This document shows positions 3,557 to 39,536 of a stretch of 43,270 bases of DNA, one piece after another; positions within the stretch are counted from its first letter, which is position 1, and the number at the start of each line of letters is the position of its first letter. Under the pieces are notes generated by a model. That model searched no databases and was not told the origin of the DNA. It saw only the letters and a program-made list of their open reading frames with translations. Source of the DNA: a virus. The stretch lies in the IMG/VR virus record IMGVR_UViG_3300035127_000009, positions 1 through 43,270 of that record; one strand, written 5' to 3'. The position numbers and the translations under genes are program-made.

Positions 3557-3967
3557 TCAGTCCCAAGTAGCCTCGTCAGCTTCGAGAAAAGTATTTTTTT
3601 CCTCAGCCGTCATTGGAAAACCCCAATGTTCAGGATTCAAAACAATGAACGGTTCAAGCTCATCTGCAAAGTCTTTCAGATAAGCGCCAATGGCTGATTT
3701 AAACGGCTCTTGGGACATAAGCTTATCGCATCTATCAAGCTTGAACGATATCCTGTACTCGTTCTCAACTGAGCAGCAGGAACATGCAACCACAATCTCA
3801 TCATCCATATAATAACGTTTAAGTGTGCCTTGATTGCACTGTTCTGGACAAGCTGCTGTTAAAAATACTTCATGCTCGTCAAGGTCGATGACCTCAACGT
3901 CTGCCAGCTGCTTTATACCAAGCAGCTGCATTCCTTTGTCTGTTTCATATTCTATTGTGCGTCTCAT
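3557..3967 (-). CDS. hypothetical Cys-containing protein (136 aa)
   Basis: It starts MRRTIEYETDKG; the GTG just before the ATG is less likely. A GAGGAG site precedes it. Cysteines occur as CPEQC and CSCC around residues 40-65, suggesting a zinc ribbon, followed by a helical acidic C-terminus. It is the gene served by the structured leader at 3971-4094. No family recognised. Confidence 0.6.
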   Translation of the reverse strand: MRRTIEYETDKGMQLLGIKQLADVEVIDLDEHEVFLTAACPEQCNQGTLKRYYMDDEIVVACSCCSVENEYRISFKLDRCDKLMSQEPFKSAIGAYLKDFADELEPFIVLNPEHWGFPMTAEEKNTFLEADEATWD

Positions 3968-3970
3968 CAC

Positions 3971-4094
3971 TTGCTCTCCTCATCTCCTCAAATCGCAGGC
4001 GACGGCCCAAAGGCGTGAGGGTTTCGAACCCTCTGACGAGGCCTTGCCTTTAAGCATCCGGTTCCGCCAGAAGGCCGCCAGACCTGCGGAGTTT
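3971..4094 (-). ncRNA. structured leader with a tRNA T-arm-like hairpin
   Basis: The whole gap between two minus-strand genes folds. GCAGG/CCTGC and CGGCC/GGCCG (3995-4007 with 4073-4087) close an outer stem. Inside are a CTGG/CCGG hairpin (4058-4070) and a longer hairpin, AAAGGC/GCCTTT (4009-4014, 4046-4051). The longer hairpin ends in GAGGG-TTCGAAA-CCCTC, which is a perfect tRNA T-arm. D and anticodon arms are missing, so it is not a tRNA gene. A leader or tRNA mimic for the 3967 gene is plausible. Confidence 0.5.
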
Positions 4095-4313
4095 CTATGA
4101 CAAGTAACGCTCAGCTATTTCCTGAGCATTAGATATGTTATGCTTGATTGTGTCAAGCATATTTTCATTTGCATATCGAGCGCATTTTAAACGCTCGAAT
4201 TCTCCAAATGCGAAAAATAGATTTCTTAGAAAGGTGAGCCTAATTGGATCTGTTTCTTTCTCAATTGCTTTTTCGACAGCCTTTTCTGAATACAGATTTT
4301 TAAAATTATTCAT
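4095..4313 (-). CDS. first gene of the leftward transcript, hypothetical
   Basis: A 72-residue protein starting MNNFKNLYSEKAVEKA. I prefer this ATG to the GTG at 4418, because a CGGAGG site precedes it and a strong promoter (4354-4381) lies inside the longer frame. The protein is helical and charged. The ribosome binding site falls in a small hairpin AACCT-GCGG-AGGTT. It sits opposite the repressor gene across the control region, the place of an early-operon regulator. Function unknown. Confidence 0.6.
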   Translation of the reverse strand: MNNFKNLYSEKAVEKAIEKETDPIRLTFLRNLFFAFGEFERLKCARYANENMLDTIKHNISNAQEIAERYLS

Positions 4314-22162: not shown

Positions 22163-22407
22163 TATTGTGCTCCATGTTTTTGTAAAACGAGATTAACATC
22201 ATCGTTTTCAAGGCTCTTTAAATCCTCGATTAAACGGTTAACAATCTCAGTATTGTTTGCATTGACCGCCTTGTATTTATTAGCCTCTGTCAAAGCCTCT
22301 ATTGCAGTTTCTTTCCAGACGTTTTCGCTTTTATTGATAGAAACCGCAAAACTAACAATAAGGCTAACAACCAAGGCAATAATAGCAACACTGATGTAAT
22401 CCCTCAC
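22162..22407 (-). CDS. single-pass membrane protein with coiled coil (81 aa)
   Basis: It starts MRDYISVAIIALVVSLIV, a transmembrane helix (residues ~5-24). A charged helical remainder follows (NRLIEDLKSLENDDVN). The topology resembles a spanin-like or Rz-type inner-membrane protein, but the location in the head module argues for caution. Overlaps neighbours by one to four bases. Confidence 0.55.
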   Translation of the reverse strand: MRDYISVAIIALVVSLIVSFAVSINKSENVWKETAIEALTEANKYKAVNANNTEIVNRLIEDLKSLENDDVNLVLQKHGAQ

Positions 22408-25167: not shown

Positions 25168-26706
25168 CTAATTTATACGTGAAATTAAATCTCGAATCTT
25201 TTGCGCAATAGCGTTAGCCTCTTCGGTCTGGCCGGTATCAACGGCTCTCTGCTTCGCTAATGCCAGCTGCTGAATTGCAAGGGGAAGTTTACCAAGCTCA
25301 TCATCCCCGGTATTGCCTTGCTCAAGTAGTCTTGCAAATTCATCGTCTACATCATCAACCCGTGGGTCTTGCTCAAGTAGAGTCCTTTGAGATAGCTTCA
25401 CGCCTGACTGATTGCTCAATTCAATCTGTTCTTTATGATTGGCAATCATATTTTTGTTAAACGTGAACTTGAATTCTTCTACATTCTCAACTCTTTTTTG
25501 CCCTAATATCTCTTTATAAGTTGTTACGAACCACATCAACTCGTAAAGAGCAAATTCAAGCTTTCTTTGCAGGAGTCCAGCTTTCAAGTCAAGCGGCAGG
25601 TAAAGCCAGTTCAAAGCAACACCTGAAGGATTCTGTCCAAAAACATCTGTCTTCGCGTCTATTGACTGGCCAAAAACATTGATATTCTCTTCGGCATTCT
25701 TCATCCATGCCATCTTCGCTTCATAAGGAATATCAAGAGACATATAATCAATATCAACATCCTCTGCATTTGCTCCGGTAGAAATCACCTTGAACATTTT
25801 GTAATTTCGCCTAATCTCTGATGGTGTGTCACTCAATCCGATTGCCTTTATAATAGCCTCTTGAATATCCTCAAGGTCATTGGCAAGAATAGAGTCTTGC
25901 ATGTCATAGGCATCAATCAGAGTTTTAATAAACCTTAAGTCTGAAATCTTGCCCATGTTATTAGATAGCTCAATAAACGGCACTCGTCCCCAAGAGCCCG
26001 CCACTCTCTCTTCTGAAGCTGTATTCCCTATGGTGAAATGTGGCTTCATCAATTCAAGCTTGAATACTTTATTTGCATCTTCTTCGTAAACTTCAACTTT
26101 ATCGGCAAACCACCATTCAACACGCGTTCTCGTTTCTTCCCTGTCAGAGATATTCACAACTATATCGTAATATCTTATCACAGATTCCAGTTTCTCTTGT
26201 CTGGTCGTTTCATAAATCGGTATAATTTCCCTGGCATCCATAACCATGAAATCGAATTTTGAACCATCGAAAAATATATGAAGGTATTCCCGGCCCTTGT
26301 TAGATGCGTTCGTTCCCCAATCAATTACCCGGTCGTGAAACTTCTTTCCGAGTATATCAACATATTCGTCTCTTAACGTTTCGTTATCATGTGTTATGGT
26401 TATCGGATTTTTTAAGAGATAGGAAATCTTTTCAAGTACTTGACGACGGTGAAATGGATGTGCTATTCTGTTGTTAGCCTTATCGGTCTGATAATGAACT
26501 TGACCACTTGCGTAATCAGTCCACTCAGTGAAATCATAATCAAGAATATCATGGTCAGCACCAAAGTAATTAACGCCATCCCACATCTCTTTGTATGCCC
26601 TACTACCCTCATGAATATCAATCAATTTCTCGATTATCTGAGGCTCTGTTAAAGGCGCAAGCGCCTCAAGTTGTGCTGCTGTTATTTGTTGTAAAGTTAG
26701 TTCCAT
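25168..26706 (-). CDS. portal protein (SPP1 gp6-like)
   Basis: A 512-residue protein starting MELTLQQITAAQLEAL. The pattern TDKANNRIAHPFHRRQVLEKISYLL, WGRVPFIELSNN, LIDAYDMQDSILANDLED and LNWLYLPLDLKAGLL is that of SPP1 gp6-type portals, the dodecameric ring through which DNA passes. No Shine-Dalgarno site precedes the ATG; instead a terminator-like T-run ends one base before it. The Asn/Gln-rich C-terminal part fits the crown domain. Confidence 0.85.
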   Translation of the reverse strand: MELTLQQITAAQLEALAPLTEPQIIEKLIDIHEGSRAYKEMWDGVNYFGADHDILDYDFTEWTDYASGQVHYQTDKANNRIAHPFHRRQVLEKISYLLKNPITITHDNETLRDEYVDILGKKFHDRVIDWGTNASNKGREYLHIFFDGSKFDFMVMDAREIIPIYETTRQEKLESVIRYYDIVVNISDREETRTRVEWWFADKVEVYEEDANKVFKLELMKPHFTIGNTASEERVAGSWGRVPFIELSNNMGKISDLRFIKTLIDAYDMQDSILANDLEDIQEAIIKAIGLSDTPSEIRRNYKMFKVISTGANAEDVDIDYMSLDIPYEAKMAWMKNAEENINVFGQSIDAKTDVFGQNPSGVALNWLYLPLDLKAGLLQRKLEFALYELMWFVTTYKEILGQKRVENVEEFKFTFNKNMIANHKEQIELSNQSGVKLSQRTLLEQDPRVDDVDDEFARLLEQGNTGDDELGKLPLAIQQLALAKQRAVDTGQTEEANAIAQKIRDLISRIN

Positions 26707-26761
26707 AAAAAAAGGCCATTCATCTACTCGCGCGGGGACACGCTTTCAATAAAATGGCCTT
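26707..26761 (-). terminator. intrinsic terminator ending at the portal start codon
   Basis: On the minus strand, AAGGCCATT (26761-26753) pairs with AATGGCCTT (26720-26712), a perfect nine-base stem with a ~32-base loop. A run of seven T (26713-26707) follows and abuts the ATG at 26706. It would end transcripts from the 26800-27060 gene and also affect portal expression. Confidence 0.7.
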
Positions 26762-33042: not shown

Positions 33043-33076
33043 TTTTAGTTATTGGCAAGGGGCAGGGGATTTGCAC

Positions 33077-33154
33077 CTAAATCCACGAAACAGATACTTT
33101 GCTACTGTACTCCTCTCCGGGCAGTACAACTCCCGGCGTAGTAATTCTCTTCAT
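33077..33154 (-). CDS. micro-ORF (25 aa, or 49 aa from GTG at 33226)
   Basis: It starts MKRITTPGVVLPGEEYS and ends at TAG. The frame stays open upstream to a GTG at 33226, which would give 49 residues and overlap 33183-33287 in another frame. The composition is protein-like but no function can be inferred. Confidence 0.35.
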   Translation of the reverse strand: MKRITTPGVVLPGEEYSSKVSVSWI

Positions 33155-33182
33155 ATCTATTCCGCCACCCTTGCCAATATTC

Positions 33183-33696: not shown

Positions 33697-33766
33697 AGGG
33701 ACAGACTGGACTTGAACCAGCAACCGCGGGACCATTCCCTAACTCTGCCTATTGAGCTACTGCCTT
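33697..33766 (-). tRNA. degenerate tRNA-like sequence
   Basis: It shares the D arm of the tRNA-Asn (AATAGGCAGAG) and has a good T arm (CTGG-TTCAAGT-CCAG). The stretch between D and T arms is three bases shorter. The anticodon arm cannot form a canonical seven-base loop. The acceptor pairs only in part (AAGGCAG with CTGTCCC). Forced folding gives anticodon GGT (Thr) with mispaired stem. It is probably a decayed tRNA or tRNA mimic. Confidence 0.6.
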
Positions 33767-35416: not shown

Positions 35417-36850
35417 TCAAAATGGTAAATTCGGTTCTTCTGTTTTCATTAGCTCTTCTGCAAAATCCTTGTTTCCAATATGACCGTTTGTCGGCTCCTT
35501 GTGCGTCTCATCTATCTCAAAAAACAGAGTCTTTGTTGGGTCAAAATGCATACCTATTGACCCAATCGGGCCAAGCCGCTGTTTTAGAATAATTATCTCG
35601 GCCAGCCCTTCGGTTGATTGTCCGTCCTCGGTTGTCTTTATCCCGTAATATTCAGGCCGGTAAATGAACATCGCAACGTCCGCGTCCTGTTCTATTGAAC
35701 CTGAGTCCCGTAAATCTGAAAGCTTTGGTCTGCTCCCGCCTCTATGTTCAACAGCCCTTGAAAGCTGGCTAATTGCCACAACCGGAATATCCAGCTCCTT
35801 TGCTGTCGCCTTGATTGCATTGCTAATCCTGGTCATCTTCTGATTATCGTTGTTCGTTTTCTCGGCGCAGCCCATGAGCTGAATGTAATCGATGAAAAGA
35901 ATCTCAATCTCGTCACGCCGCTTCATATTCCGAGCAAGACTCCGCAACCCAACATCAGTAAGTCCAGCCACGTCCGCAATGGTTATTGGCAAGCTGCTAA
36001 AAAACTCCTTATTCGCATCAAGCCTTACTTGCTCATCAGCATCAAGTTCACCCTTGATAATCTTGCGCGCATTCATCCGGCATTCGATTGCAAGAAGCTG
36101 ATTTGTTATCTGAAGCTCTGACATCTCAAGGCTGATAATACCTACGGAAATGAATTTCTGTGAAGCTATATTGTAGGCCAAATTAAAAGCCAAACTGCTC
36201 TTACCCATACTTGGGCGCCCGGCAATCACAATGTAGTCTTTCTTCTGGAATCCCTCTGTGTAATAATTCAACTGCCTGTACCCGGTTGATAACCCTAATA
36301 ACATGCCCGGCATTTTCTTTCTTTCCTCAATGATTTGATTCAATTCCTTAAACGGTTCCCCTACCCTGCGGAAACTTACATTCCGGCCAACTCCGATACT
36401 GAAAAACTTCTCTTGTGCCATCTCAAGGCAATCCAGCCCGCCTTGTTCTTTTGTCGCTTCATAAACCTCATTTGCAACCGTTCGAATTTTCCGGAGAGTT
36501 GATTTGTCTTTCACTATCTTGGCGTAATATTCAACACTTGCAGATGATGGCAAAGATTCAGGCAATTGTGTGACATAATACGCGCCGCCTACTTCCTCAA
36601 GTACCTGCATTTTTTCGAGCTGGTCAGTGACAGTCAGATAATCTACTGCCTCTTGCTTATCAGACAGACTTAGAATTGCCTCGAAAATTAACCGATGCTG
36701 TTTTTTGTAAAAGTCCTCTTTGTCAAGAATCTCAATCGATTTATCAATGGCCGCTGGATCCAGCATCATCGAGCCAAGGACGGCCATTTCCTCTTCAATC
36801 GCCTGTGGCGGCAGGGACTCGTGGGAATGGCTTGTATCCGGGGTTGTCAT
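35417..36850 (-). CDS. dnaB: replicative DNA helicase (DnaB family)
   Basis: A 477-residue protein. The N-terminal primase-interacting domain (PQAIEEEMAVLGSMMLDPAAI) is followed by Walker A GRPSMGKSS (residues ~195-205), ISLEMS, and Walker B LFIDYIQLMG. ISQLSRAVEHR and LRDSGSIEQDADVAMFIYRPEYY complete the helicase core. It unwinds the fork. GGAGC lies before the ATG, and the start overlaps the end of the replication protein by 56 bases. Confidence 0.93.
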   Translation of the reverse strand: MTTPDTSHSHESLPPQAIEEEMAVLGSMMLDPAAIDKSIEILDKEDFYKKQHRLIFEAILSLSDKQEAVDYLTVTDQLEKMQVLEEVGGAYYVTQLPESLPSSASVEYYAKIVKDKSTLRKIRTVANEVYEATKEQGGLDCLEMAQEKFFSIGVGRNVSFRRVGEPFKELNQIIEERKKMPGMLLGLSTGYRQLNYYTEGFQKKDYIVIAGRPSMGKSSLAFNLAYNIASQKFISVGIISLEMSELQITNQLLAIECRMNARKIIKGELDADEQVRLDANKEFFSSLPITIADVAGLTDVGLRSLARNMKRRDEIEILFIDYIQLMGCAEKTNNDNQKMTRISNAIKATAKELDIPVVAISQLSRAVEHRGGSRPKLSDLRDSGSIEQDADVAMFIYRPEYYGIKTTEDGQSTEGLAEIIILKQRLGPIGSIGMHFDPTKTLFFEIDETHKEPTNGHIGNKDFAEELMKTEEPNLPF

Positions 36851-37877
36851 ATTGCTCCTGCTGTTTGGTATTATTGCCGTTGGCCTTGATACTCTTTACG
36901 TCCACCTCATCTTGCCATCTTTCTTGATTCAGCCAGGTTGCCGGGTTCGGCGGATCGGTGCCTCGAATCTCTAAACGCTTTAGATAATAGGCTCGTTGTG
37001 ATTTCCAAGCTTTAATGATGTCTTCTGATGGTGTTCTCTTAAGTGCCTTATCCCAAGCCTTTTTTGCTGCCCCTTTGCCTACCTTGCGGATTTGTGACGG
37101 CCAAAACTCCTCGAATCTGTCCGGGTCTTTGCGCTTGCCGTTAAGTCTATGCCTGCATTTTTTGCAACATCCCCCTTTTTTTGTTGCTGGTGCTTTTTGG
37201 CATAACTTACACACCCAGTCCGCTTCTGGAGCTTCTGGGTTGGGCTTTGAACTATCCGGATTTTCCGGAGGGTTCGGAAATTCGGGGTTGATAGGTAGCC
37301 ATCGATTTGTATTTGTCCACAATTGGCATGCTTGACAAAAATTCTTTTGTTTATCGGTTCTAAAATCAGCTTTAAATGTTCCACACGAAGGACAAACAGC
37401 GCCGTCAGGCGCGGGTTCTTTTTCTTTTTCAGTTTTATTAATAAAATCAGTTTTATTAGAAGCATCATTATTATTATAGGCGGGATTTTCTCGACCCTCG
37501 AAGTTTTCCGAGTCTCTAACATTTCCGAGGTCGGATATTTCTTGCCTCGGTGATTTTGCCTTCTGGTAAGCTCTGCATAACGATGGCCGTTCAAATATCA
37601 GATATTCACTGCCAGATAACTTGCCATCTTCCCCACGAATCTTTTCAAGGATTGCATACTCAGAGGCAATCAATTCCTTAAAAGCAGACTCAATTTTGTT
37701 TTTGGTGTTCTTTATGAAACGCTTGATTATTTCTCCCTTCCGGGCTTTCCAATTATCTGGCTTGCTGAGAAGGTATACAAGCAGGGCCATGCTTTCCATT
37801 GACAATGATTTATCATTCAATGGTTCGTTATCAATTGTGCTAAACTCACGTTCCTTCTTAACTCGTATGTTGCTCAT
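36795..37877 (-). CDS. replication initiator-like protein (O-like)
   Basis: A 360-residue protein. The N-terminal winged-helix (SMESMALLVYLLSKPDNWKARKGEIIKR) resembles phage replisome organisers. The Pro/Asn-rich middle contains paired cysteines (CPSCG, CQACQ, CKLCQ, CCKKC), two zinc ribbons. The C-terminal FEEFWPSQIRKVGKGAAKKAWDKAL and NPATWLNQERWQDE are typical of phage O-like/DnaD-linked proteins that load helicase. It precedes DnaB, the usual pairing. An AT-rich tract and GGA-periodic repeats lie inside the gene. Confidence 0.75.
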   Translation of the reverse strand: MSNIRVKKEREFSTIDNEPLNDKSLSMESMALLVYLLSKPDNWKARKGEIIKRFIKNTKNKIESAFKELIASEYAILEKIRGEDGKLSGSEYLIFERPSLCRAYQKAKSPRQEISDLGNVRDSENFEGRENPAYNNNDASNKTDFINKTEKEKEPAPDGAVCPSCGTFKADFRTDKQKNFCQACQLWTNTNRWLPINPEFPNPPENPDSSKPNPEAPEADWVCKLCQKAPATKKGGCCKKCRHRLNGKRKDPDRFEEFWPSQIRKVGKGAAKKAWDKALKRTPSEDIIKAWKSQRAYYLKRLEIRGTDPPNPATWLNQERWQDEVDVKSIKANGNNTKQQEQYDNPGYKPFPRVPAATGD

Positions 37878-38221
37878 GGTGTGACCTCATATTGCATATG
37901 GTGGTAAATTTGCATATCCCTATATCGTACATGTCTTTGAATCATATTGCCATACTCAGCTAACAATGTCAATTTGCTAACCTCATCCCCGCACCATCTA
38001 TTTGGTGGTATCCTTGGATTCCAAATGCCATTGCCCGGCGGACAATCATCAAAATAATTGAGAACGGCATGATATTGCCCATGCAACTTAGCAGGTATCG
38101 CCACCAAATTATCTATGTCATTATTGCTTCTGTCAAAGTCGAGGTGATGAACATGAAAGCCTTGTGGGATAGGCTCTCCGGTTTGTTCTTCGTAAAATTC
38201 CCGGAGTTTCTTAGATGTCAT
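37874..38221 (-). CDS. HNH endonuclease
   Basis: A 115-residue protein starting MTSKKLREFYEEQTGEPI. HVHHLDFDRSNNDIDNLVAIPAKLHGQYH is the HNH/HNHc zinc-free signature with the HH, N and H residues. A C-terminal part rich in His and Tyr follows. It overlaps the replication gene. Free-standing HNH enzymes of phages are often homing nucleases or packaging aids; position argues for a mobile homing type. Confidence 0.75.
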   Translation of the reverse strand: MTSKKLREFYEEQTGEPIPQGFHVHHLDFDRSNNDIDNLVAIPAKLHGQYHAVLNYFDDCPPGNGIWNPRIPPNRWCGDEVSKLTLLAEYGNMIQRHVRYRDMQIYHHMQYEVTP

Positions 38222-38240: not shown

Positions 38241-38552
38241 TCAATCAATTTGATAACTTACATAAGCGTCATAGCCAAGGTCTACCAACTTTTGCACAGC
38301 AGCCTCTACCATGACGGTGTTTCTGTTTGCTTGTCCAGACGATGGAACATTGACAAAGAAAGTTCCAGAGCGAGCAACAGATTTACGCAGATTCAGTTTC
38401 GAAGCTATGCGCAAATGCATACCCTTAAGTATTATCATCGCAGAATCACGGTTACAAGAACCGCCATCATTGCCCGCTCCAGGGTCTGCCTCTATTGCTG
38501 CCTGCCTTGCTTGTTTCAATGCTTCTGATAGTTTATCGATGTCATAAGCCAT
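38241..38552 (-). CDS. first gene after the structured leader, hypothetical
   Basis: A 103-residue protein starting MAYDIDKLSEALKQARQ. Helical start, one cysteine (GSCNRD), then ARSGTFFVNVPSSGQANRNTVMVEAAV. AGGAGAAC precedes the ATG. It is the first gene of the replication operon after promoter 38733-38761 and the interleaved leader, so it may be subject to RNA control. Unknown family. Confidence 0.55.
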   Translation of the reverse strand: MAYDIDKLSEALKQARQAAIEADPGAGNDGGSCNRDSAMIILKGMHLRIASKLNLRKSVARSGTFFVNVPSSGQANRNTVMVEAAVQKLVDLGYDAYVSYQID

Positions 38553-38726
38553 GATGTTCTCCTAAAATGAAAATGTCCTTACACCTGAAGCCGAGCCGCA
38601 ACGCCGAATGATAGTTTGTATCGAGCAAGAAAAATACAAATGGCACACCCGGCCCCATGTGTAAGGACACCGTTATTTCTTGCTCTAACTGTACGATTAT
38701 TCAGCCGTTGCGGAGCTGTTTAACCG
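38553..38726 (-). ncRNA. long structured leader with interleaved helices (pseudoknot)
   Basis: Three strong pairings. A: TGTCCTTACAC (minus strand, 38669-38659, top strand reads the complement) with GTGTAAGGACA (38584-38574). B: CCGCAACG-CUGAAU (38713-38699) with AUUCGG-CGUUGCGG (38609-38596), with one bulged base. C: GAGCAAGAAA (38685-38676) with TTTCTTGCTC (38632-38623). B encloses C. The 38659-38669 segment lies in the loop of C and pairs outside B, forming a pseudoknot next to the ribosome binding site of 38552. Confidence 0.65.
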
Positions 38727-38732
38727 CATCTC

Positions 38733-38761
38733 AATATACCTATCTATTCAGAAAAATGCAA
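38733..38761 (-). promoter_or_regulatory. promoter of the replication operon leader
   Basis: On the minus strand, TTGCAT (38756-38761), 17 bases, TATATT (38733-38738). Predicted start near 38726, giving a 174-base leader. Confidence 0.65.
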
Positions 38762-38879
38762 GAGCTAAAAGTAATCGTCGTTTATCAACCCTCAACGGCA
38801 CACTGGATAGCAAAAGCTGTCTCGATAGCACAAACATAGTTTTTTCCATCTATTTCTTCAGTAAAAACATCTCATTTTT
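38762..38879 (-). other. spacer with an orphan open frame
   Basis: Between the 38880 gene and the promoter. A minus-strand frame of about 28 codons ends at 38785 and contains EEIDGKNYVCAIETAFAIQ, but a TGA precedes it and no start codon is present. It may be a gene remnant. No other signal seen. Confidence 0.35.
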
Positions 38880-39110
38880 TTATCCTTTTCTGCAATCTCG
38901 ACATTTGCCTTTTTTAGTAAAGCCCAGACGTGGCATGCCCGGCAGAGGTTTGTCGTCGTCGCCGGTATCGTAGACAGTATCGCAGCCTCGGCAGATAAAC
39001 AAAATCAAATTTAGCCGCTTTGAACCTTGCTTGACATATTCTCGCGGCTTGCGCGGCTTCGCTATTTTAAAAGGCTCTCGGTTGCCGAATGGTTTAACTT
39101 GTCGTGCCAA
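38880..39110 (-). CDS. small zinc-ribbon protein, TTG start (76 aa)
   Basis: It starts at TTG behind AGGA and reads ARQVKPFGNREPFKIAK, strongly basic. CRGC and CRDC (residues ~45-75) make a zinc ribbon. It follows the structured region 39111-39293. Possibly nucleic-acid binding. Confidence 0.55.
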   Translation of the reverse strand: MARQVKPFGNREPFKIAKPRKPREYVKQGSKRLNLILFICRGCDTVYDTGDDDKPLPGMPRLGFTKKGKCRDCRKG

Positions 39111-39293
39111 TTTTCATGTCCTAAATAATGGAGCGCCCGGCCAAGCCAAGGGAAAACCAGACGCTCCGGAGTTATGAGGTAGGTTCCTAACTCCCGGCAC
39201 GGGGATACTCTATTATAATTTTGCCGGGGTCGATTAAAATCAGGCCAAACTCCTACGGTTAGGAGCGGGCCGTGTTATTGGTATCCCCGCTTA
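39111..39293 (-). ncRNA. structured intergenic region with hairpin array
   Basis: On the minus strand, in order: GGGGATAC (39288-39281); hairpin CTCCTA/TAGGAG (39265-39250); CCCGGC (39228-39223); GTATCCCC (39208-39201), which pairs with the first segment across; GCCGGG (39198-39193), which pairs with CCCGGC. Hairpins GGAGTTA/TAACTCC and GGAGCG/CGCTCC follow. GTTAGGA in the third block could pair instead with TCCTAAC in the first hairpin. A TATAAT box (39212-39217) lies inside. Confidence 0.55.
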
Positions 39294-39536
39294 TTAAAAC
39301 ATGTCTGTCAAATCCTGATACATCAGTTTTTTTATATCACTTATTTCTCTATTTATCTTTAGTAATCTATCAAGAATAAGAGCTTTCCCGCTTGGCTTAA
39401 TTTCAATCGCCTCGTAAGTTGTAAATTTAGTTTTACATGCTTTGCATCTTTTTCTGCGCCTTGTAACTGCACCACCAAAAGTTGGACGAGAATCTATTGT
39501 ATGAGTGTTAGTACTCTTGCATTCAGGACATTTCAC
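39294..39536 (-). CDS. NrdR-like zinc-ribbon protein lacking the ATP cone
   Basis: An 80-residue protein starting MKCPECKSTNTHTIDSR. The DSRPTFGGAVTRRRKRCKAC and TTYEAIEIKP segments match the NrdR N-terminal zinc ribbon (CPxC...DSR...RRRxxCxxC...TTYE). The ~100-residue ATP-cone that follows in cellular NrdR is missing; only ~30 helical residues remain. Cellular NrdR represses ribonucleotide reductase genes, none of which are in the window. Confidence 0.7.
   Translation of the reverse strand: MKCPECKSTNTHTIDSRPTFGGAVTRRRKRCKACKTKFTTYEAIEIKPSGKALILDRLLKINREISDIKKLMYQDLTDMF

What the first reader, a model, noticed from the sequence alone, without database searches (positions are those of the whole stretch)
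38553..38761. Long pseudoknotted leader in front of the replication operon
A good promoter is followed by 174 non-coding bases with three long pairings of 10, 11 and 14 bp. Two are nested and the third crosses them, so that a hairpin loop pairs with bases just upstream of the ribosome binding site. Three independent pairings of this length in 150 bases are unlikely by chance. It could be a translational switch, an autoregulatory binding site or an antitermination element.
Basis: partly seen in the sequence, partly recalled or inferred. Interest (0 to 1): 0.8.

Follow-up and report, generated by a model that had tools for sequence, protein, structure and literature searches.

The report
Crossing-helix RNA leader before replication genes
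The RNA in front of this unclassified phage's replication genes carries three long, mutually crossing base-pairings and then a stretch resembling a transcription stop signal, so it is probably an RNA switch that decides whether the genes are read, but no relative carries the same sequence against which to test it.

Summary
The leader (minus strand 38761-38553) has Watson-Crick helices of 11 bp (C), 10 bp (B) and 8 bp (A, 14 with a bulge and one G-U). A encloses B, and C crosses both. No shuffle in 20,000 matched it, and it ranks first of 862 windows of this genome. The promoter is only 8/12. Stem C is followed by UUUUCAUUUU and then the Shine-Dalgarno, so it looks like a terminator; this was not in the finding. 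Step-by-step folding forms A+B first, and the C hairpin wins once complete. No sequence homologue was found, so covariation could not be tested. The nearest kin (L070, terminase 64%) has an unrelated sequence of the same anatomy at the same place: promoter, early stem, crossing later hairpin with U7, start codon of its own replication operon. L223 is similar. A controlled test did not prove a general class. Best reading: a co-transcriptional attenuator or pseudoknot gating the replication operon. It works like P4-type leader termination but is not shown to belong to any known family. The stem crossing and statistics are shown; termination and the controlling signal are inferred.

The parts
38733..38761 (-). 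weak sigma-70-like promoter TTGCAT-17-TATATT
   Evidence: sequence; 8/12 matches, below the scanner threshold
38697..38729 (-). mini-ORF MRLNSSATAE, overlapping the left arm of A; almost no room for an SD, may be meaningless
38699..38713 (-). helix A, left arm (CCGCAACGGCTGAAT)
38596..38609 (-). helix A, right arm (ATTCGGCGTTGCGG)
38676..38685 (-). helix B, left arm (GAGCAAGAAA)
38623..38632 (-). helix B, right arm (TTTCTTGCTC)
38659..38669 (-). helix C, left arm (TGTCCTTACAC), in the loop of B
38574..38584 (-). helix C, right arm (GTGTAAGGACA), crosses A and B
38650..38657 (-). inner extension of the C hairpin (TGGGGCCG with CGGCTTCA 38593-38586); competes with the outer part of A in the predicted folds
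38615..38640 (-). small hairpin D (TTTGTAT/ATACAAA) with B's right arm in its loop
38564..38573 (-). U-rich tract UUUUCAUUUU directly after stem C (terminator-like)
   Evidence: sequence
38558..38563 (-). Shine-Dalgarno AGGAGA
   Evidence: sequence
38241..38552 (-). 103-aa phage protein of unknown function (phrog_23592), first gene of the operon; confident alpha/beta model, no PDB fold match
37874..38221 (-). HNH endonuclease (HNH_3)
36795..37877 (-). replication initiator
35417..36850 (-). DnaB-like replicative helicase

Best explanation
A co-transcriptional RNA attenuator at the head of the phage replication operon. As RNA polymerase leaves the promoter, A and B pair first (early stem S1). 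When the right arm of C emerges, C either closes a long hairpin followed by a U-rich tract, which stops some transcripts just before the Shine-Dalgarno, or pairs with the loop of S1 to give an H-type pseudoknot that lets transcription continue. What tips the balance (a phage protein, ribosome movement over the left arm of A, a small RNA, or kinetics alone) is unknown. Shown: the helices, their crossing, their non-randomness, the U-tract and the operon. Computed: the order of folding. Inferred: termination, its regulation and its purpose (setting when and how much replication protein is made).
For: Stem totals not reached in 20,000 shuffles. C is followed by UUUUCAUUUU and the SD. Prefix folding: A+B at -47.9 kcal/mol when the RNA reaches leader position 183, the C hairpin at -57.5 at position 195. 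The SD is partly open in both states, so simple SD masking is less likely. The nearest kin phage, L070 (terminase 64%), has in unrelated sequence a promoter TTGACT-17-TATATT (10/12), an early 12-bp WC stem (16 with G-U), a crossing later hairpin (19 bp + 7 bp) followed by T7, and then the ATG of an HNH gene leading its own replication operon of replisome organizer, primase and helicase; there too the early stem is predicted first and then displaced; 0 of 10,000 shuffles match its stems. L223 has the same layout upstream of genes including a DnaD-like loader and DnaB (2 of 10,000 shuffles).
Against: No homologous leader, hence no covariation. The U-tract is interrupted by CA, the lower part of stem C is only moderately G+C-rich, and the hairpin loop is large, so its strength as a terminator is uncertain. 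Among 244 terminator-like hairpins in the phage loci, loop pairing with upstream DNA (9 at p<=0.01) is no commoner than with downstream DNA (8), so a general class is not proven. RNAfold ignores pseudoknots; the combined A+B+C energy was only estimated.
Confidence: 0.42

Rival explanations
1. A pseudoknotted translational operator: a phage protein (the 103-aa product, or a replication protein) binds the A/B/C pseudoknot and represses or activates its own translation, as T4 gp32 does.
For: Pseudoknot about 20 nt upstream of the start codon of a replication operon; U-rich single strand between pseudoknot and SD; T4 gene 32 precedent (PMC3014915; PMC535899). The 103-aa protein folds confidently as alpha/beta.
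Against: No RNA-binding fold was recognised. Distant relatives of the 103-aa gene lack such a leader, one AT-rich case aside. The SD is not masked.
Confidence: 0.2
2. A leader that yields a short RNA acting in trans by its complementary arms, as in P4 immunity (CI RNA) or Gifsy-1 IsrK: the terminated short transcript pairs with the full-length leader and silences or activates the operon.
For: Each arm has its complement in the same transcript, and a terminator-like end would release a short RNA. P4 shuts off its replication genes by premature termination using such pairings, and IsrK has alternative structures and two isoforms (PMC4825925).
Against: Neither a repressor nor an integrase was recognised among the window proteins searched, so lysogeny is not indicated. 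Nothing speaks for trans action over cis folding. No Rfam match.
Confidence: 0.13
3. A terminator or insulator, or a 5' stabilising structure, whose extra complementarities arose by chance or rearrangement and are not regulatory.
For: Structured intergenic regions and terminator-like hairpins directly before genes recur in this phage (26712-26761 before the portal gene; 39121-39300). The loop-pairing class test was negative.
Against: Three perfect stems of 11, 10 and 8 bp were not reached in 20,000 shuffles; similar anatomy before the replication operon of the nearest kin.
Confidence: 0.17
4. A DNA-level element: paired operators (dyad GTGT-N4-ACAC, 86 bp apart), a replication origin, or a mobile remnant with inverted ends.
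For: The arms of C read as one perfect and one near-perfect (one mismatch) GTGTNNNNACAC dyad; the early stem of L070 is also two near-palindromes. Inverted repeats are symmetrical in DNA.
Against: Does not explain A and B. The sense RNA is the more stable strand. No DnaA boxes and no direct repeats in the leader; AT-rich repeats that would suit an origin lie inside the initiator gene, 37361-37464. No exact copy of C's arms elsewhere in the genome.
Confidence: 0.08

Closest known systems
P4 immunity leader (seqA/CI RNA/seqC) and Gifsy-1 IsrK
   Same: Phage leader RNA with mutually complementary segments; P4 stops transcription before its replication genes (PMC4825925).
   Different: In P4 one RNA (CI) pairs with two segments (seqA, seqC) and is processed out to act as an antisense RNA; here three distinct arms pair one to one in crossing order, and no processed RNA or immunity is known. 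No Rfam match.
T4 gene 32 mRNA pseudoknot (gp32 translational operator)
   Same: Pseudoknot upstream of the ribosome binding site of a phage replication gene.
   Different: T4's is a compact ~28-nt structure about 67 nt upstream, nucleating cooperative protein binding along an A+U-rich stretch; this one has 10-14 bp stems in about 140 nt, and its first gene is not a recognised single-strand binding protein.
HK022 put RNA antiterminator
   Same: Cis RNA downstream of an early phage promoter that affects termination.
   Different: put is about 70 nt with two stem-loops; no pseudoknot, and the anatomy does not match.
Transcription attenuators and riboswitches with H-type pseudoknots
   Same: Early and late helices compete before an intrinsic terminator ahead of the gene (general knowledge).
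   Different: No recognised aptamer or conserved core; no Rfam family matches even at E up to 5.

Membership tests
Rfam RNA families (4,227 models) | match to the covariance model | tested here: not met
   no match, even at E <= 5 on the leader alone
Intrinsic transcription attenuator | hairpin directly followed by a U-rich tract, before the gene | tested here: met
   C hairpin then UUUUCAUUUU then SD; the loop is far larger than the 3-8 nt the scanner allows
Intrinsic transcription attenuator | alternative upstream pairing that forms earlier and competes with or crosses the terminator | tested here: met
   prefix folding: A+B first, C hairpin later; prediction only
Intrinsic transcription attenuator | measured termination that changes with a signal | not testable with these tools
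   needs RNA 3'-end mapping or in vitro transcription
T4 gene 32-type autogenous operator | pseudoknot upstream of the RBS of the gene | tested here: met
   crossing helices end about 20 nt before the ATG
T4 gene 32-type autogenous operator | the encoded protein binds its own leader | not testable with these tools
   103-aa protein: no RNA-binding homologue or fold found
P4 CI RNA / IsrK leader | one segment (CI RNA) complementary to two others (seqA, seqC) | tested here: not met
   no arm has a second good complement of comparable length in the leader; copies of C's arms elsewhere have at least 2 mismatches
P4 CI RNA / IsrK leader | stable short RNA made from the leader | not testable with these tools
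   no transcriptome available
HK022 put RNA | about 70 nt, two adjacent stem-loops | tested here: not met
   topology is crossing, span 140 nt

The most novel reading that the evidence does not exclude
Unrelated phages repeatedly evolve the same device at the head of the replication operon: a promoter, an early long stem, then a terminator hairpin whose loop pairs back with upstream RNA, a pseudoknotted attenuator recognisable by anatomy and not by sequence (window, L070, L223, perhaps L014), used to time replication.
Probability: 0.2. Interest if true: 0.72.

Novelty: new variant of a known kind. Interest (0 to 1): 0.5.

Why it matters
[quoted passage not shown] A leader with this anatomy in an unclassified phage, with a look-alike at the same place in its nearest kin, suggests that RNA-level control of phage replication operons may be commoner than sequence-based family searches show. 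It is directly testable with one reporter construct and compensatory mutations.

Tried and rejected
Homologue hunts that found no related leader: leader and replication region against phages; B arms and C arms as flexible DNA patterns in viral and genome contigs (the few hits were chance matches in coding DNA); single-protein scans with the 103-aa protein, initiator and helicase. Alignment scans: 103-aa family (53 viral loci; 2 genome loci), terminase (only L070/L071 are near kin), helicase; none carries a related leader. The very AT-rich L041 upstream region reaches the same stem total but was set aside as low-complexity. Class idea: 13 against about 0.6 expected for triple crossing stems of 27 bp or more and 5 against 0.4 for crossing stems with a T-rich tail, but the first count includes repeat-driven hits (L139), shuffles destroy real terminators, and the better control shows no excess over downstream pairing, so it is kept only as a lead. 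Overlapping upstream ORFs of about 40 codons in window, L070 and L223: base rate 27%, not evidence. Origin idea: no DnaA boxes or iterons in the leader. Structure of the 103-aa protein: confident model, no PDB match.

Full report
The window is a whole 43,270-base virus record from a public viral collection (whether the genome is complete is not stated), a tailed phage with terminase, portal, head and tail genes whose genes run mostly on the minus strand. Its structural proteins have only distant named relatives (terminase at most about 40% identity). The region in question lies upstream of 103 aa (unknown, phrog_23592) - HNH endonuclease - replication initiator - DnaB helicase, and downstream of recombination genes (RecE-like exonuclease, Erf annealing protein) and small zinc-ribbon ORFs.

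Check of the observation. Exhaustive pairing of the 209 nt gives three perfect Watson-Crick stems: TGTCCTTACAC/GTGTAAGGACA (11), GAGCAAGAAA/TTTCTTGCTC (10) and CCGCAACG/CGTTGCGG (8, continuing past a bulge to 14 pairs). Order along the RNA: A B C B' A' C'. This is an H-type pseudoknot in which stem 1 is A+B and stem 2 is C. No shuffle in 20,000 reaches the same total, and no other 209-nt window of the genome does. The sense strand is the more stable one. The promoter is present but weak (8/12).

What the finding did not say. Stem C is followed by UUUUCAUUUU and then AGGAGA. The pseudoknot-free minimum is a long hairpin on C extended by TGGGGCCG/CGGCTTCA, which competes with the outer part of A. 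Folding growing prefixes predicts A+B up to leader position 183 and the C hairpin from position 195. The estimated energy of A+B+C together is similar to that of the C hairpin (A+B with C arms free -45.6, plus -16.2 for C, less an unknown pseudoknot penalty). The SD is partly accessible in both states. This anatomy suits transcription attenuation better than SD masking.

Homologues. None with this sequence: DNA search of the phage collection, flexible arm patterns in viral and genome contigs, and scans with single proteins and protein alignments all failed (follow-up).

Related anatomy elsewhere. A scan for the same crossing order in 2.34 Mb of fetched phage DNA and inspection of the hits gave three notable cases. 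(i) L070, the nearest kin (terminase 64%, portal about 40%): promoter TTGACT-17-TATATT at 819-847, early stem 893-904/948-959 (12 WC, 16 with G-U), later hairpin 909-934/966-992, T7, ATG at 1004 of an HNH gene followed by replisome organizer, primase and helicase. The early stem is predicted first and then displaced by the hairpin. The replication genes of L070 are of a different kind from the window's, yet the leader anatomy and position agree. (ii) L223: a promoter-like TATATTTG, stems GCTTAGG, ACGAAACTAC, AATCCCCGGA, tail CTTCTTTT, in an operon with a DnaD-like loader and DnaB. (iii) L014 (same sequence in L025): a long composite stem crossed by GCGCGGAGC, tail CTTTTG, not next to recognised replication genes. 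Against reading this as a proven class: with 244 terminator-like hairpins as the base, loop pairing upstream is no commoner than downstream, and the early stem of L070 is palindromic, so it could also be paired DNA operators.

Mechanism. Most likely (0.42) the leader is a co-transcriptional attenuator or pseudoknot in which the early stem and the terminator-like hairpin compete. Rivals: protein-bound translational operator like T4 gene 32 (0.20), inert terminator or stabiliser (0.17), trans-acting leader RNA as in P4/IsrK (0.13), DNA element (0.08). Papers consulted: PMC3014915 and PMC535899 (gene 32), PMC4825925 (IsrK and P4), PMC9378689 (put RNA).

Membership. No Rfam family. It meets the sequence-level features of an attenuator (hairpin, U-rich tract, earlier competing pairing) but termination is unmeasured. 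It fails the one-segment-with-two-partners feature of P4 and the two-stem-loop feature of put. The binding test for a gene 32-type operator cannot be run here. I therefore call it a new variant of a known kind (phage leader RNA control) and not a member of a named family.

Noticed in passing
window 39115-39293 (minus): A second structured leader before a 76-aa zinc-ribbon-like ORF (38880-39110): crossing stems CGGGGATAC, CCCGGCA, TCCTAAC, then an 11-bp hairpin and AUUAUUUAGGA; fold z -4.0, stem total reached by 65 of 3,000 shuffles.
   Followed up: partly
window 22201-22380 (minus): The strongest fold outlier of the genome (z -7.5 with 30 shuffles): a long hairpin that overlaps a possible 81-aa ORF.
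   Followed up: no
window 3961-4260 (minus): Very stable structure with a T-arm-like GAGGGTTCGAAACCCTC, tRNA-like but not called as tRNA by ARAGORN or Rfam.
   Followed up: partly
window 33050-33179 (minus): 12-bp closing stem TATTGGCAAGGG/CCCTTGCCAATA around tRNA-Leu-like D- and T-arm sequences; perhaps a decayed or expanded tRNA next to the tRNA-Asn.
   Followed up: partly
window 33697-33766 (minus): Second tRNA (Rfam 30 bits) with a shortened anticodon arm; ARAGORN does not call it.
   Followed up: no
window 26706-26761 (minus): Terminator-like hairpin AAGGCCATT...AATGGCCTT followed by a run of T abutting the ATG of the portal gene, with no visible SD; a further stem CACGCTTTCA crosses it. 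A hairpin also precedes the portal gene in L070.
   Followed up: partly
window 37361-37464: AT-rich direct repeats (TCAGTTTTATTA, TAAAATCAGNTTTA) inside the initiator gene, a candidate replication origin.
   Followed up: no
window 38787-38879 (minus): Remnant reading MRCFY* then, in another frame, EEIDGKNYVCAIETAFAIQCAVEG*: a zinc-finger-like small gene broken by a frameshift, or a recoding site (read).
   Followed up: no
L070 3565-6081: Helicase ORF of 838 aa with an intein-like insertion (CLGAGTPILMSDGS...VTHN) near the Walker A motif.
   Followed up: no
L108 14526-14605: skipping-rope RNA (RF02924, 55.9 bits) in a phage contig.
   Followed up: no
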